Shown one piece after another: positions 47,356 through 64,000 of a stretch of 64,000 bases of DNA. Position 1 is the stretch's first letter, and each line of letters opens with the position of its first letter. Below the pieces are notes generated by a model, which was given only the letters and a program-made list of their open reading frames with translations, made no database searches and had not been told where the DNA came from. The stretch is taken from NCBI GenBank assembly GCA_005778405.1, contig SXOA01000062.1, forward strand, positions 1 through 64,000. The letters run 5' to 3'. Origin of the DNA: Planctomycetaceae bacterium (GTDB taxonomy: Bacteria; Planctomycetota; Planctomycetia; Pirellulales; Pirellulaceae). Position numbers and translations under genes: made by a program.

Positions 47356-50061
47356 TCACCCCCCCGCCGGCGCTCCCATCGCCAATAGCTTCGCCAGCGT
47401 ATGCGCCAGGTTATCCAGCGCCGATTTATCCGGCAACGTGATGGTCAGCCGCGGCTTGCCGTCGGTATCCTGGTCCACGCATTGTTCCAGCCGCGATTTG
47501 AGGCCAGAGACGAGTTCGGGGGCGGGCTCCGTTCCGCCATTGGCCGAACTTGCCGCGACCAGTTCGCCCAGGAACTGGAAGGCAGCGCCGAGCAATTCGC
47601 CCCCAGCGGCTGCGACCCGTTCGCGCTGAGCGGAGTTGAGTTTTTGCGACTCTTGCTCCACGGCCAGCTTCACGGACTCGTCGACCTGCGCTTCTTGCTT
47701 CGCGCCCAGCAGAATCTCCAGCCGCGATTTCAGTTCATCCATGCCGCTGGCGACATCGACTTCGTCCGTTTCCGAATCGACATCCAGGGCCGCCAGTGCC
47801 AGATCCTTCTTGGCCGACAGCGTTCCGAGTAGGTTTTCCTCCAGCGTCCTTTCGGTCACCAGCACGTAGACTTGAACGGGCTGGGTTTGTCCCATGCGGT
47901 GGGCGCGGCCGATCCGCTGCTCCAGAACGGCAGGATTCCAGGGCAAGTCCACATTGATGACGGTGTTGGCCGCTTGCAGGTTGAGCCCCTGCGAGCCGGC
48001 GTTGGACATGATGATGGCTTTGCACTCCGGGTTCGTCTGAAACTCATGCACAATCGCCTGCCGCTGTTTTTGTGGCACGCTGCCGTCGAGCCGCACAAAC
48101 GGCAGCTTCCGTTTCTTGAGCAGCGGCTGAATGAGGTCGAGCATGGTCGTCCATTCGGAAAACAGAACCACCTTCCGCCCTACTTCTTCAAACAGCCGGT
48201 CAAACAATTCGGCCAGGTAATCAAGCTTGGTCGAAAAACTGGGGTTCTGTTTGGTGCATAGGTAGGAGCTATCCGCCGCCATCCGGCACATGAGCAACGC
48301 TTGCCGCAGCCGCAGCAAGTCCATCTCGGAGATGAACGCTTTGCGGACGATGCCCGCTACAACCCGCATATTGGTGGTATGGAGCGCAAGCTGCTCATCC
48401 GTCGGCGGAATGCGGATGATTTCCACGGTACGGGGCGGCAATTCCAGTTTCACGCTGTCCCGCGTCCGGCGGAGCAGCAGCGACTTCAAATTCTCGCGCA
48501 GCGTCGCCAGATTCTTGTAACCCAGCACGTGCCCCTTCTCGTCAACAACCCTATGCTGGTTGAAAAAGCGAAAGCCCGGCCCGAGCCGGCGGTCGTCGAT
48601 GAACTGCACCACGCTGTAAAGGTCGTCCAGCCGGTTTTCCAGCGGTGTACCGGAAAGGACCAAAGCAAACGGCGACTTCAAGCACTTGATTACATTGCTC
48701 GTCTTGGTTTCCCAGTTTTTGATCCGCTGCCCTTCATCCAAAATGATCAGGTCCCACTTCGCCCGCTCAATGAACAGGATGTCTCGCAGCACTTGCTCGT
48801 AGTTGCAAACGGTGAAGAAGCAGTCGCTCTGGTACTGGTCGCCGCGAATCTTCGCGCCGCCGGAAACGAGCTGCACGTCCCGCCCGCAGAACTTGTGAAT
48901 TTCATTTCGCCATTGCGACTTGAGCGAGGCCGGGCAAACGATAAGAACCTTCTTGATGTTCGCTTCTCGCGCGAGCATCTCCGCCACGCCGACCGCCTGA
49001 ATCGTTTTGCCGAGTCCCATGTCGTCCGCCAGTATCGCCCGGCCCGCCCCGACGGCGAACGCGACGCCGTCCATCTGATAGGGCAAGAGCGGTACTTTGA
49101 GCAGCGTCTTGCGAAGCGGATGGTTGTGGGGGTTTAGCCGAATCTCGGCCACCTTGGCCTGAATCCGCTGCTGATAGAGCCGCTTCTGGATGAACTCCTC
49201 GGCATCGGGATAGATGATGACTTCGTATCCGACGGCTTCGAGTTTGCCGACCCTTTTGAGCAGTTCGGAGTGGTTTGCAATCGGCTTGTCGCGCCAGGAG
49301 CCGACGAGAGCCTCGGCATCCGCCTGAAGCTTCTCCGGCATTTCCAGCCTGAGTTCGATCTCGCTCCCGTATTTCAAATGGACGGCGAAATTCTTGGGCT
49401 TGAAGGCTTTCTTGCGAGCCTGGGGCGGGAACTTCCGCTTGACCTTCTCCAGCACGTGCAGAATGTGTTTGCACGTTCCCAGCGTGTTGGTGCGAAAGTC
49501 CGGACAACTGCAAAACGATTCGCCGGGCTCCGTCCCGCGCAATGCGACCCGATAGGACTTGCCGCTGAGCGTGTTGGTCAGCGTGTAATCGGTCCAAGGC
49601 TGCGCTGCATCGGCGGCCTGCAGCTTCATCTTCTCCACTTTGGCACGTTCCAAGCGGTCTTCGATCGCTCGCTGGATGAGTTCCTCTTCCCGCAAGCTTT
49701 CCACCCCCACCCGCTTCTTCTCCGGCGGAGCCGCCGCTAGACCGAGAGCCGTCTTCTCCTCCAGGATGAGCGAGAATGCCGCGCCGGCATGAATGCAGGC
49801 CCCGCTGCAATGGTCACAGTGCCAATGCAGCCGCTGTTTGGCCTCGGCCATTGACGTGATCGTGAGAATTGCCCCGCCCGACTTGAGCCGGAACAAATCG
49901 TCCCCCAGGTAGACATCTTCCTCAATCTTGATGTCCCACTTCCCGCCGTGCTGGATAAGCTTCCGTCCCTCCTCTCCCAGCAGCTTGCAGGCGTCTGTGA
50001 AGGTAAGCCTTGACAAGCGGTCTCGAAGTGTGAGTTGCTGTCCTTGCCTGGTCGTCGTCAT
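47356..50061 (-). CDS. SNF2-family helicase with SWIM zinc finger
   Basis: 901 residues from ATG 50061, with AAGGAAC as ribosome site; the track start adds 13 residues. N-terminal CDHCSGACIHAG and the SWIM motif CSCPDFRTNTLGTCKH (about 190-206) are zinc-binding and suggest DNA or protein contacts. The helicase core begins near 335: motif I DDMGLGKTIQA, motif II IILDEGQ (DEGQ in place of DEAH), motif III LSGTPLEN, motif V SNAGSQGLNLQAANTVINVDLPWNP and motif VI QRIGRAHRMGQ. SNF2 proteins move along double-stranded DNA. No methylase, nuclease or defence genes are adjacent, so a repair or transcription role is as likely as defence. Confidence 0.92.
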   Translation of the reverse strand: MTTTRQGQQLTLRDRLSRLTFTDACKLLGEEGRKLIQHGGKWDIKIEEDVYLGDDLFRLKSGGAILTITSMAEAKQRLHWHCDHCSGACIHAGAAFSLILEEKTALGLAAAPPEKKRVGVESLREEELIQRAIEDRLERAKVEKMKLQAADAAQPWTDYTLTNTLSGKSYRVALRGTEPGESFCSCPDFRTNTLGTCKHILHVLEKVKRKFPPQARKKAFKPKNFAVHLKYGSEIELRLEMPEKLQADAEALVGSWRDKPIANHSELLKRVGKLEAVGYEVIIYPDAEEFIQKRLYQQRIQAKVAEIRLNPHNHPLRKTLLKVPLLPYQMDGVAFAVGAGRAILADDMGLGKTIQAVGVAEMLAREANIKKVLIVCPASLKSQWRNEIHKFCGRDVQLVSGGAKIRGDQYQSDCFFTVCNYEQVLRDILFIERAKWDLIILDEGQRIKNWETKTSNVIKCLKSPFALVLSGTPLENRLDDLYSVVQFIDDRRLGPGFRFFNQHRVVDEKGHVLGYKNLATLRENLKSLLLRRTRDSVKLELPPRTVEIIRIPPTDEQLALHTTNMRVVAGIVRKAFISEMDLLRLRQALLMCRMAADSSYLCTKQNPSFSTKLDYLAELFDRLFEEVGRKVVLFSEWTTMLDLIQPLLKKRKLPFVRLDGSVPQKQRQAIVHEFQTNPECKAIIMSNAGSQGLNLQAANTVINVDLPWNPAVLEQRIGRAHRMGQTQPVQVYVLVTERTLEENLLGTLSAKKDLALAALDVDSETDEVDVASGMDELKSRLEILLGAKQEAQVDESVKLAVEQESQKLNSAQRERVAAAGGELLGAAFQFLGELVAASSANGGTEPAPELVSGLKSRLEQCVDQDTDGKPRLTITLPDKSALDNLAHTLAKLLAMGAPAGG

Positions 50062-50103
50062 GACGGAGTTCCTTGAAGTTGTTCCTGGAAGCGGTTGCAA
50101 AAA

Positions 50104-53289: not shown

Positions 53290-53808
53290 CTAATCATCGT
53301 CATCGATGCTCAGCGGCGGATCCCACTTGGCGATAATGTTCCGCGGGCTCGGGTCCAGTTGAAAGATGCCGAGCGACTGGAGCCGAGAGAGAATCTTTCG
53401 GATCGTCGGCCAATGGGATTTCCAGGCCCGTTTTTGAGTTTCCAGCCACTCGGCCTCTTGTTCGTCGTCATACGGTCCGTTTTCGTGCAAATAGGCCTTT
53501 CCGAAGTCCAGGACGCAGGGGGGCTCGACAATCGACATTTCGATCACCATCAGTGAATCGCTAAACTCGCGCATCCAAGGGACCGTAAAACCGCATATAT
53601 CCGTAATGTTGTGCTCCTGGAGGACACGGTAGCAGTCCCGCTCGGTTTCATAACTCCGCTGGCGGTGAAATACCTTAACGGCAGTCTTCATGTCAGTTCG
53701 GAACACCCCGCCATCGGTTCCTTCCCCGAGCGCGGGGACTTGGATTGCCCGTTTTTGAGCCGTACAGTACTAATGCAGTCGTTCCTGAACACTTAACGGG
53801 TCACTCAT
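53290..53808 (-). pseudogene. Small protein-kinase-like gene interrupted by an in-frame amber codon
   Basis: The track shows 138 residues from GTG 53706. Reading further upstream in the same frame gives ALGEGTDGGVFRT just before TAVKVF, a Gly-rich loop followed by the catalytic-type Lys of a kinase fold. The frame then meets TAG (53770-53772) and beyond it continues in frame to ATG 53808 as MSDPLSVQERLH. Later segments fit a reduced kinase: Glu in the alpha-C region (YETERDCYR), VIEMSIVEPPCVLDFGKAYL and LGIFQLDPSPRNI, where a catalytic loop would be. No ATG, GTG or TTG lies between the TAG and the Gly loop. It may be a pseudogene, be read through, or restart at GTG without the loop. Confidence 0.6.
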
Positions 53809-54121
53809 GATGTTTTCCGAAACAGCAGGCCATTCGGCAACGGTGGAGATTCGCCTTCGGGCGCAGGGCATGGTTCTGCGTGTGGCGCAGGTGGGGGAGG
53901 AATCCCTAATCCTGCGTGACCCATGCGAGCTCCCTCCTTGCGACGGCCTGATTGAAATCGTGGTCGATGGCCATCTGGATTGCTACCCCATCTATCTGCA
54001 CGCGGGAATCACCCCCGGCTCCCAATTCATCGATTTTCGCAACGTCTCCGCCCCCAACAGCGACGAACGTCAAGCTTTACTCTTCGACGACGACAATGCA
54101 ATTCCGGGTTGCCCGTTTTAG
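53807..54121 (+). CDS. Hypothetical small protein
   Basis: 104 residues. Beta-rich and acidic (TVEIRLRAQGMVLRVAQVGEESLILRDPCELPPCDGLIEIVVDGH), without signal peptide or membrane segment; the fold could be PilZ- or barrel-like, but no motif proves it. Its ATG overlaps the start codon of the divergent kinase-like frame (CATG), leaving no room for promoters between them, and no ribosome site is visible. Its last residues and TAG are inside one of two imperfect direct repeats (53744-53775 and 54108-54138). Confidence 0.55.
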   Translation: MMFSETAGHSATVEIRLRAQGMVLRVAQVGEESLILRDPCELPPCDGLIEIVVDGHLDCYPIYLHAGITPGSQFIDFRNVSAPNSDERQALLFDDDNAIPGCPF

Positions 54122-62101: not shown

Positions 62102-62362
62102 CTACCGTTTCGTTGTGTCTCCCGACATCAGGAAGTCCACGGACGCTGGGTCGAGGGACATCGAAGCGGCCGGTGCCACGGGGGGCGTGGTGGTATTACG
62201 CTGAGTGAAGGCGTCCGCGTCGTCCCCGGCCCCGCGGCCGTTCCAGGCGACGGAGAGCTGACTCTGCCGTCCGTCGGTAGTGGTGTTTACGATCATCGTG
62301 TCGCTGAGCGACCCGTCGGCGTTCAGTCGGTGGACGCGCACGTCCTTGGTAAATACGTGCAA
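62102..62362 (-). pseudogene. Decayed tandem copy of the 3' end of the surface protein gene
   Basis: Encodes 86 residues (track start MHVFTKD) that match the last about 95 residues of the gene at 62392-64000: VRVHRLNADGSLSDTMIV against IRVRRLNADGSLSDTFIV, then WNGRGAGDDADAFTQR, and a shared ending DPASVDFLMSGDTTKR against DAALVDFLMSEDTSKK. An in-frame 27-base deletion removes ATGDGFIVS-type residues of the complete copy. It begins 29 bases after the complete gene's stop, so it is a duplicated tail without its own start or signal; expression is unlikely. Confidence 0.75.
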
Positions 62363-62391
62363 CAGTGGCCTTCGCTGAGGCTGCCGCTGGT

Positions 62392-64000
62392 TTACCGCTT
62401 CTTGCTCGTGTCCTCCGACATCAAGAAATCCACCAAGGCTGCGTCGAGGGACGACGCACCAGCCGGTGCGGCAGGGGGCGGTGTAGTCGTATAACGCTGA
62501 GTGAAGACGCCGGCGTCGTCCCCGGCCCCGCGGCCGTTCCAGGAGACGATAAAGCCGTCTCCGGTCGCCGCCACGGAAGGCTGAATCTGGCGTCCCTCGA
62601 TGGTGCTGTTCACGATGAACGTGTCGCTGAGCGACCCGTCCGCGTTCAGGCGGCGGACCCGTATGTCCGTAGTATTGAGCAGCAGGTCCGGGGGTGACTC
62701 AACATTGTACGGTTTCGCTTTCCAGGCAACTGTCACATTGCCGGCACTATCGATGGCCGTCCCCCGAGATGTCCCCGGATGTAGGTTGCCAGCTTCGCCG
62801 AAGACTACATTGCCTCCCAAAGGTTGGCCTGCGGCGTTATAGACCTGAGCCGTTCCGCCGCCGGCGCCGGTCCAGGTCACGACGAAGCGGCCACTGCTGT
62901 TCATGGCGACCGAAGTACCGTTGCCGCCGGCTGCGACCGTCATGAGATTCCCCACTTTGGCACCGGAAGCACTATATCGCTGGGCGAAGATGCCGTTATT
63001 GGTGGCGCTAAAATATCCCTGGAAAGACACGACAAAGTTTCCCGCCCCATCCATGGCGATTGCTTCCGAGCCGTTGCCTAGTATGGCCGCCGAGACAATC
63101 GTCCGACTGCCGACAGCCGCTCCCGAGCTATTAAATCGTTGGAACAGAGTGGCGTAGGAAACGCCCCCTGGCCCGCTGGCGGTGGCGATCCCCGTCATCA
63201 GCACCGCGAAATCGCCACTGGCATCCATGGCGATTCCGCTGGCATGGAGCGACTCTTTTTTATTGTTGGCACTGACTTGCACGACCCCAGTCACCGGATT
63301 TCCAGTGACCCCGTTGTAGGTCCGAACCTTGGGGGTCGTGGCACCGCCGTAGCCGTCCCAGGAAACGGCGAACCGGCTCCCGTCCCCCGACATGGCCACC
63401 ACGGGCATCTGGGGTATCCACGAGGCGGAAGTGCGTGTTGCCGTACCAACAAGGATGTCATTGGTCCGCGGCGTCCCATCGGCATTGAAGACCCGCACGA
63501 AGACCTTGTCCTGGAGATCGGCCTGAGGGGAAAGCCAGGCCACGACGTAATTGCCAGCGTTGTCTGCCGCGACGCTGTTGGCATCAATAAACTCGTCATG
63601 TTCGGTATTCGCTGCCGTTCCCTGCTCGCCCGCGACCGTCTGGTTGACCAGCGTTTCGCCGCCGACGGGATAGAAGCCGCCCGCATACGGCACAAACCGG
63701 AAGCCAAAATTCACCACCGCATCGACGGTCGCGCCGGGCGGGACCGCCACTTGCTGGTAGTAATTGTTTGTGTTCAGCCAGCGGCCCGTGCTGTCCCCGG
63801 CAGGAAAGATGGCGCTCCCATAGTGCCAAACGCCGGCGGGGACGGTGGGAAAACTGAATTGATAGCTCCCGTCGCCGCCGGTCACCACGGTATCTTCCCC
63901 CACGTCCAGCAGGGCATTGGCGTCCGTCTCGTGAAACACAGTAATGCCCGCCAGCGGCAATTCGCCCCCATCCTGGCTGCCGTTGCCGTTGGCGTCGTTG
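62392..64000 (-). CDS. Large surface protein with SdrD-like B-repeat and seven propeller-type repeats (5' end beyond window)
   Basis: The frame is open to base 64000, so the track start at 63960 is not the true start. The beginning in the window, NDANGNGSQDGGELPLAGITVF, then GDGSYQFSFPTVPAG, is an SdrD-B/Cna-B-type calcium-binding repeat found on cell-surface proteins. About seven repeats of 50-70 residues follow with the core G-x-F-V-V-x-W-x-G (NYVVAWLSP, RFAVSWDGYG, NFVVSFQGYF, RFVVTWTGAGGG, NVTVAWKAKP, GFIVSWNGRG). They probably form a beta-propeller. The C-terminal SSLDAALVDFLMSEDTSKKR may be a family-specific tail. Function unknown; extracellular adhesion is plausible. Confidence 0.8.
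   Translation of the reverse strand, partial: NDANGNGSQDGGELPLAGITVFHETDANALLDVGEDTVVTGGDGSYQFSFPTVPAGVWHYGSAIFPAGDSTGRWLNTNNYYQQVAVPPGATVDAVVNFGFRFVPYAGGFYPVGGETLVNQTVAGEQGTAANTEHDEFIDANSVAADNAGNYVVAWLSPQADLQDKVFVRVFNADGTPRTNDILVGTATRTSASWIPQMPVVAMSGDGSRFAVSWDGYGGATTPKVRTYNGVTGNPVTGVVQVSANNKKESLHASGIAMDASGDFAVLMTGIATASGPGGVSYATLFQRFNSSGAAVGSRTIVSAAILGNGSEAIAMDGAGNFVVSFQGYFSATNNGIFAQRYSASGAKVGNLMTVAAGGNGTSVAMNSSGRFVVTWTGAGGGTAQVYNAAGQPLGGNVVFGEAGNLHPGTSRGTAIDSAGNVTVAWKAKPYNVESPPDLLLNTTDIRVRRLNADGSLSDTFIVNSTIEGRQIQPSVAATGDGFIVSWNGRGAGDDAGVFTQRYTTTPPPAAPAGASSLDAALVDFLMSEDTSKKR

What the first reader, a model, noticed from the sequence alone, without database searches (positions are those of the whole stretch)
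53290..53808. Kinase-like gene with an in-frame amber codon before its Gly-rich loop
Upstream of the annotated GTG, the same frame encodes ALGEGTDGGVFRT directly before TAVKVF, a nucleotide-loop pattern. A TAG is at 53770, and beyond it the frame continues to an ATG with MSDPLSVQERLH. No normal start lies between TAG and the loop. Either a recent nonsense mutation, readthrough of TAG, or a sequencing error explains this; a start at the GTG would lose the loop.
Basis: partly seen in the sequence, partly recalled or inferred. Interest (0 to 1): 0.65.

Follow-up and report, generated by a model that had tools for sequence, protein, structure and literature searches.

The report
Stop-broken kinase gene in planctomycete pair
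A small kinase-like gene in a planctomycete bacterium carries a premature stop codon near its start, most likely an ordinary disabling mutation, but it belongs to a tightly arranged two-gene unit in which the kinase gene is repeatedly broken across the phylum while its partner stays intact, a pattern that looks like a toxin and its antidote.

Summary
On the minus strand, ATG 53808 opens MSDPLSVQERLH, then TAG (53772-53770), then a frame with a Gly-rich loop, VAVK-type lysine and catalytic-loop residues, ending in its own TAG (53292-53290). Relatives show that ATG 53808 is the true start and that the loop is conserved. The residue at the TAG is variable in the family.
Best explanation: a nonsense mutation that disables the gene. 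The family (PADLOC PDLC01137 'ST_Kinase'; unnamed in Pfam/NCBIfam) has 34 of 97 assessable loci broken by stops, frameshifts or deletions, including in single-contig genomes. One shows TGG>TAG between strains 97.8% identical. Readthrough is unlikely: RF1 is present, TAG ends 12 of 35 long ORFs in the window, and no tRNA(CUA) was found. One oddity remains: a tRNA-Ser-like gene with anticodon UUA at a contig end of this genome. A base error cannot be excluded.
What is unusual is the module. A divergent small partner (53807-54121, +) shares one CATG with the kinase start in 71 of 77 scorable loci. Intact kinases always have the partner; broken ones usually keep it. Intact kinases are under strong purifying selection. 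This resembles a toxin-antitoxin pair, but that is inference.

The parts
53290..53808 (-). Kinase-like gene read through its premature TAG (172 codons plus the terminal TAG)
   Evidence: homologues; PADLOC PDLC01137 E 6.8e-31 for the part after the TAG
53806..53809 (.). CATG shared by the start codons of the kinase gene (-) and the partner gene (+)
   Evidence: conserved in 71 of 77 scorable loci
53770..53772 (-). Premature in-frame TAG (codon 13), at a column that is variable in the family
53701..53730 (-). Gly-rich loop LGEGTDGGVF
   Evidence: G28 and G30 invariant in A2
53674..53676 (-). Invariant lysine of the VAIK-type motif (K45)
53704..53706 (-). GTG from which the mechanical ORF list starts; lies inside the loop
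53503..53508 (-). Invariant Asp-Phe (LDFGKA motif), placed before the catalytic loop
53338..53355 (-). Catalytic-loop motif D-x4-N (DPSPRN), invariant D152 and N157
   Evidence: aligns with the HRDLKPEN region of solved kinases
53290..53292 (-). Terminal stop codon of the same frame, also TAG
53807..54121 (+). Divergent partner gene (MMFSETAGHSATVEIRL..., 104 aa); weak PilZ-like beta-barrel fold prediction
   Evidence: found next to 92 of 100 distinct family loci; model and fold search

Best explanation
The window holds a genuine member of a planctomycete family of about 165-aa kinase-like proteins whose reading frame has been interrupted by a nonsense mutation at codon 13. A ribosome starting at ATG 53808 stops after 12 residues. 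The only usual start before the lysine motif, a GTG inside the loop (with one ATG just after it), would give a protein without its nucleotide loop, so a working kinase is most likely not made: a recent pseudogene, since everything after the TAG still looks intact. The gene forms a head-to-head pair with a small partner gene, both start codons lying in one CATG. Across the phylum the kinase is repeatedly inactivated while the partner is kept, which is what would be expected if the kinase is costly or harmful and the partner restrains it. Shown: frame, homology, start, TAG, recurrent lesions, partner retention, purifying selection on intact copies. Inferred: that the mutation is real in the organism, that no working kinase is made, and the toxin-antidote-like reading of the pair.
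For: Homologues share the start and the N-terminus around the TAG column. The base before the ATG is fixed as C because the partner's ATG overlaps it, which independently fixes ATG 53808 as the start. 34 of 97 assessable distinct loci are broken (with L101 re-read as intact), against 2 of 88 assessable partner genes (Fisher p about 3e-9). Loci from single-contig genomes are also broken (L077, L084, L080, L087, L090). A direct example is L053 against L050/L057, TGG>TAG at 97.8% nucleotide identity. The stop-only cases use TAG, TAA and TGA at different positions, which fits mutation and not a fixed recoding site. Intact close pairs have kinase dN/dS mostly 0.05-0.15. RF1 is present; TAG ends 12 of 35 long ORFs in the window and this ORF itself.
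Against: Nothing after the TAG has decayed: all 17 invariant residues of A2 are kept and codon usage still looks coding, so a sequencing error, very recent loss or some rescue remains possible. No second assembly of the same species was available. The same genome carries a tRNA-Ser-like gene with anticodon UUA and one other gene with a lone in-frame TAG.
Confidence: 0.76

Rival explanations
1. Sequencing or assembly base error: the organism has a sense codon here and the gene is intact.
For: The genome is a 203-contig assembly of 91.65% completeness and no second assembly of the species was found. The rest of the frame is undamaged.
Against: Only 1 of 151 domain matches of three large families in this assembly has an internal stop, whereas the family's own rate of broken genes is about 35%, so real decay is the more likely cause a priori.
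Confidence: 0.12
2. TAG is read through at low or regulated level, for instance by the tRNA-Ser-like gene with anticodon UUA at G000:C45:55-143, giving a full-length kinase.
For: A UUA anticodon can read UAA and by wobble UAG. A normal tRNA-Ser(UGA) appears to exist separately at the end of contig C138, so the UUA copy could be a spare. A sulfatase in the same genome also has one in-frame TAG.
Against: 29 of 29 relatives' orthologous tRNAs scanned read UGA. The UUA copy lies at a contig start and its 5' acceptor strand GGCAGGG mismatches its 3' strand CCCATCC at two positions. RF1 is present. TAG and TAA are ordinary stops in the window. The kinase frame itself ends in TAG. In the family, lone stops use all three codons.
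Confidence: 0.06
3. Translation starts downstream of the TAG at a rare start codon or by reinitiation, so that a nearly full kinase is still made.
For: Residues between the TAG and the loop are poorly conserved, so a start there would lose little of the core.
Against: There is no ATG, GTG or TTG between the TAG and the loop. In nearly all well-placed homologues the start is the upstream ATG, and in 71 of 77 it is the one shared with the partner in a CATG.
Confidence: 0.05
4. On the role of the pair (compatible with the nonsense mutation): the kinase is not a toxin-like element; it is a dispensable regulator that is often lost, and the partner has an independent job.
For: The partner stays intact in 24 loci with a broken kinase and occurs without a detectable intact kinase in several genomes, for instance G053 and G082. 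Both genes are under purifying selection when present.
Against: None of the 63 intact kinase loci lacks the partner (62 with an intact partner, 1 at a contig edge), and the shared start codons suggest coupled function. Flanking genes differ from locus to locus, as in a mobile self-contained pair.
Confidence: 0.45

Closest known systems
PADLOC PDLC01137 'ST_Kinase' (Ser/Thr kinase reported beside a putative adaptation module operon next to type I-C CRISPR systems in Rhodopirellula)
   Same: Same family by sequence: 21 of 21 intact relatives match (best E 6.2e-43, near full length), and the window fragment matches positions 21-160 of 162 (E 6.8e-31).
   Different: No CRISPR-type repeat array or cas gene was found around the window gene, flanking genes vary between loci, and the PADLOC description does not mention the divergent partner.
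HipA-type kinase toxins with HipB antitoxins
   Same: A kinase-fold protein genetically tied to a small partner, with asymmetric loss; what it might work like.
   Different: No HipA family match in Pfam, NCBIfam or PADLOC; divergent genes instead of an operon; partner predicted as a beta-barrel, not a helix-turn-helix protein.
Aminoglycoside phosphotransferase APH(2''), Bud32/PRPK and RIO kinases
   Same: Best fold matches in the PDB, Foldseek E 6e-5 to 1e-3, probability near 1.
   Different: Low TM-scores (about 0.33-0.47 by query). The chain ends just after the catalytic loop and the invariant Asp-Phe lies before it.
PilZ domains (for the partner)
   Same: Top fold matches are PilZ domains, probability about 1 but E only 0.035 or worse.
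   Different: No Pfam match, no significant E-value, and no sign of the c-di-GMP-binding motifs in the alignment.

Membership tests
PADLOC PDLC01137 ST_Kinase | Sequence match over most of the profile | tested here: met
   window fragment, positions 21-160 of 162; 21 of 21 relatives
PADLOC PDLC01137 ST_Kinase | Location beside a type I-C CRISPR adaptation operon (part of the PADLOC description, not of the sequence profile) | tested here: not met
   no cas or adaptation gene among ten neighbours plus the adjacent 417-aa ORF, no repeat array in the window; the helicase at 47356-50100 gives generic SNF2 matches
Protein kinase-like fold | Gly-rich loop, Lys, Glu and catalytic-loop D-x4-N | tested here: met
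   invariant in the family and present in the window frame
Protein kinase-like fold | DFG motif after the catalytic loop | tested here: not met
   the protein ends just after the catalytic loop; the only invariant Asp-Phe precedes it. An active canonical protein kinase is therefore not claimed
Toxin-antitoxin module | Two-gene unit; toxin gene not found intact without its partner | tested here: met
   none of 63 intact kinase loci lacks the partner
Toxin-antitoxin module | Toxicity of one product neutralised by the other | not testable with these tools
   needs expression in a laboratory strain
HipA family | HipA profile match | tested here: not met
   no HipA match in Pfam, NCBIfam or PADLOC
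Stop-codon readthrough gene | Dedicated suppressor tRNA or recoding context conserved across the family | tested here: inconclusive
   stops differ in type and position between relatives; a UUA-anticodon tRNA copy exists at a contig end

The most novel reading that the evidence does not exclude
A Planctomycetota-specific kinase/partner toxin-antidote or defence module of a new kind: a minimal kinase with its Asp-Phe motif moved before the catalytic loop, paired head to head with a PilZ-like partner through a single shared CATG start site that forces reciprocal expression, the kinase arm being repeatedly inactivated by mutation.
Probability: 0.3. Interest if true: 0.75.

Novelty: new variant of a known kind. 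Interest (0 to 1): 0.5.

Why it matters
The premature stop itself is ordinary. It leads to a family in which one gene of a pair is strongly conserved when intact yet broken in about a third of loci, while the partner is hardly ever broken. That combination is expected of toxins and costly defence genes and gives a directly testable pair. The nearly invariant sharing of one CATG by two divergent start codons is rarely described (a literature search found no case) and raises the question of how two genes can be initiated from the same four bases.

Tried and rejected
Kinase search of viral contigs: no relatives. Close relatives by single-protein scan of GTDB contigs: none; the alignment scan found 36 loci. 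A third conserved neighbour gene: none, flanking proteins hardly cluster, and defence genes appear near only some loci. The 417-aa ORF beside the partner is not conserved with the module. A general suppressor: no tRNA(CUA) among the tRNA genes examined. Promoter or Shine-Dalgarno motif flanking the CATG: only CATG is conserved, flanks carry little information, and no sigma-70 or terminator site at the window locus. Many interrupted genes in the window by codon usage: the pairs flagged look like adjacent or opposite-strand genes (not checked one by one). Literature: no paper found on this family or on shared divergent start codons.

Full report
Observation. On the minus strand the frame 53808-53290 reads MSDPLSVQERLH*YCTAQKRAIQVPALGEGTDGGVFRTDMKTAVKVF...LDPSPRNIIAKWDPPLSIDDDD*. 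The first stop is TAG at 53772-53770 and the last is TAG at 53292-53290. No ATG, GTG or TTG lies between the first TAG and the loop; the GTG at 53706 is inside the loop.

Family. A search with the part after the TAG found relatives in 25 of 99 related genomes at 28-44% identity. Reading these upstream shows a common N-terminus, M-x(5-8)-ERAxxYA...LGxGTDGxVW, which aligns with the window on both sides of the TAG. The TAG column holds G, K, R, E, D, A, Q, H, I or L in relatives, so it is a variable position. All 17 invariant columns of alignment A2 are kept in the window. Pfam and NCBIfam have no family for it; PADLOC has PDLC01137 'ST_Kinase', a Rhodopirellula kinase described beside type I-C CRISPR loci. 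All relatives whose record names a lineage are Planctomycetota, apart from one record titled only 'bacterium'; none was found in viral contigs. A model of an intact relative (mean pLDDT 95.6) matches APH(2''), PRPK, RIO and CK2 kinases. The chain ends just after the catalytic loop, and the only invariant Asp-Phe (LDFGKA) comes before it, so the canonical DFG position is missing. Whether it is an active kinase is unknown.

Partner and shared start. A divergent small gene lies immediately upstream (window 53807-54121, +). A profile of it hits the flank of 92 of 100 distinct family loci in the same geometry. In 71 of the 77 loci where a kinase ATG could be placed and a partner was present, both start codons lie in one CATG and are in frame; nothing else around it is conserved. 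This fixes ATG 53808 as the real start. The predicted partner fold is a small beta-barrel (mean pLDDT 81) with weak PilZ matches (best E 0.035). Flanking genes differ between loci, so the pair appears to be self-contained.

Recurrent damage. An automatic tally of 100 distinct loci gave 35 broken by stops, frameshifts or loss of an end, 62 intact and 3 cut only by contig ends. Re-reading L101, whose stop lies before its start, gives 34 broken of 97. Lone internal stops include TAG, TAA and TGA at different positions. L053 differs from L050 and L057 by a TGG>TAG change at 97.8% identity. Broken copies also occur in single-contig genomes (L077, L080, L084, L087, L090), so assembly error is not the general cause. 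The partner is broken in 2 of 88 assessable loci. Of 63 intact kinase loci, 62 have an intact partner and 1 has the partner at a contig edge; of 34 broken ones, 24 keep an intact partner, 2 have a broken one, 7 lack it and 1 is at an edge. Two partner-only genomes (G063, G059) retain short kinase remnants. Pairwise dN/dS is mostly 0.05-0.15 for intact kinases and mostly 0.07-0.3 for partners. The tally is a count over available genomes, not of independent events; lesions were called by script, and the searches also pick up remnants.

Readthrough and error. G000 has RF1. TAG ends 12 of 35 long ORFs of the window. No tRNA(CUA) was found among the tRNA genes examined. One tRNA-Ser-like gene at G000:C45:55-143 has anticodon UUA, which could read UAA and UAG. 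In 29 of 29 relatives scanned the orthologue reads UGA, and in G000 contig C138 ends inside what looks like the normal UGA copy. The UUA copy has two acceptor mismatches and sits at a contig start, so it may be a decayed duplicate or a chimeric contig end. Among 31 sulfatase, 89 Pkinase and 31 SBP_bac_10 matches in G000 only one, a sulfatase with a lone TAG, has an internal stop. Base errors and general readthrough are therefore rare in this assembly, though neither is excluded at this site.

Interpretation. The TAG is most likely a genuine, recent nonsense mutation in a gene whose family is often inactivated. A protein from the GTG would lack the loop. Strong constraint when intact, frequent loss, an intact kinase never seen without its partner, and coupled start codons together resemble a toxin-antitoxin or costly defence pair. 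Toxicity was not and cannot be tested here, so membership in such a system is not claimed.

Noticed in passing
G000:C45:55-143 (locus L194): tRNA-Ser-like gene with anticodon UUA, potentially reading UAA/UAG, with a mismatched acceptor stem, at the start of a contig; 29 of 29 relatives scanned have UGA there.
   Followed up: partly
G000:C143:128194-129426 (locus L254): Otherwise intact arylsulfatase gene with one in-frame TAG (...LDNTLF*YIVGDNGSSAEGG...), the only one of 151 domain matches checked with an internal stop.
   Followed up: partly
53503-53508 and the family (A1, A4): Invariant Asp-Phe (LDFGKA) lies before, not after, the catalytic loop: possibly a transposed DFG motif in a minimal kinase.
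   Followed up: partly
53806-53809 and 71 loci of the family: Two divergent genes share one CATG as start codons, with no other conserved motif around it.
   Followed up: partly
G000:C143:3506-5211: Dense array of about 17 tRNA genes within 2 kb.
   Followed up: no
62180-62674: Direct repeats of 73 and 114 nt, spaced about 300 nt, 79-88% alike.
   Followed up: no
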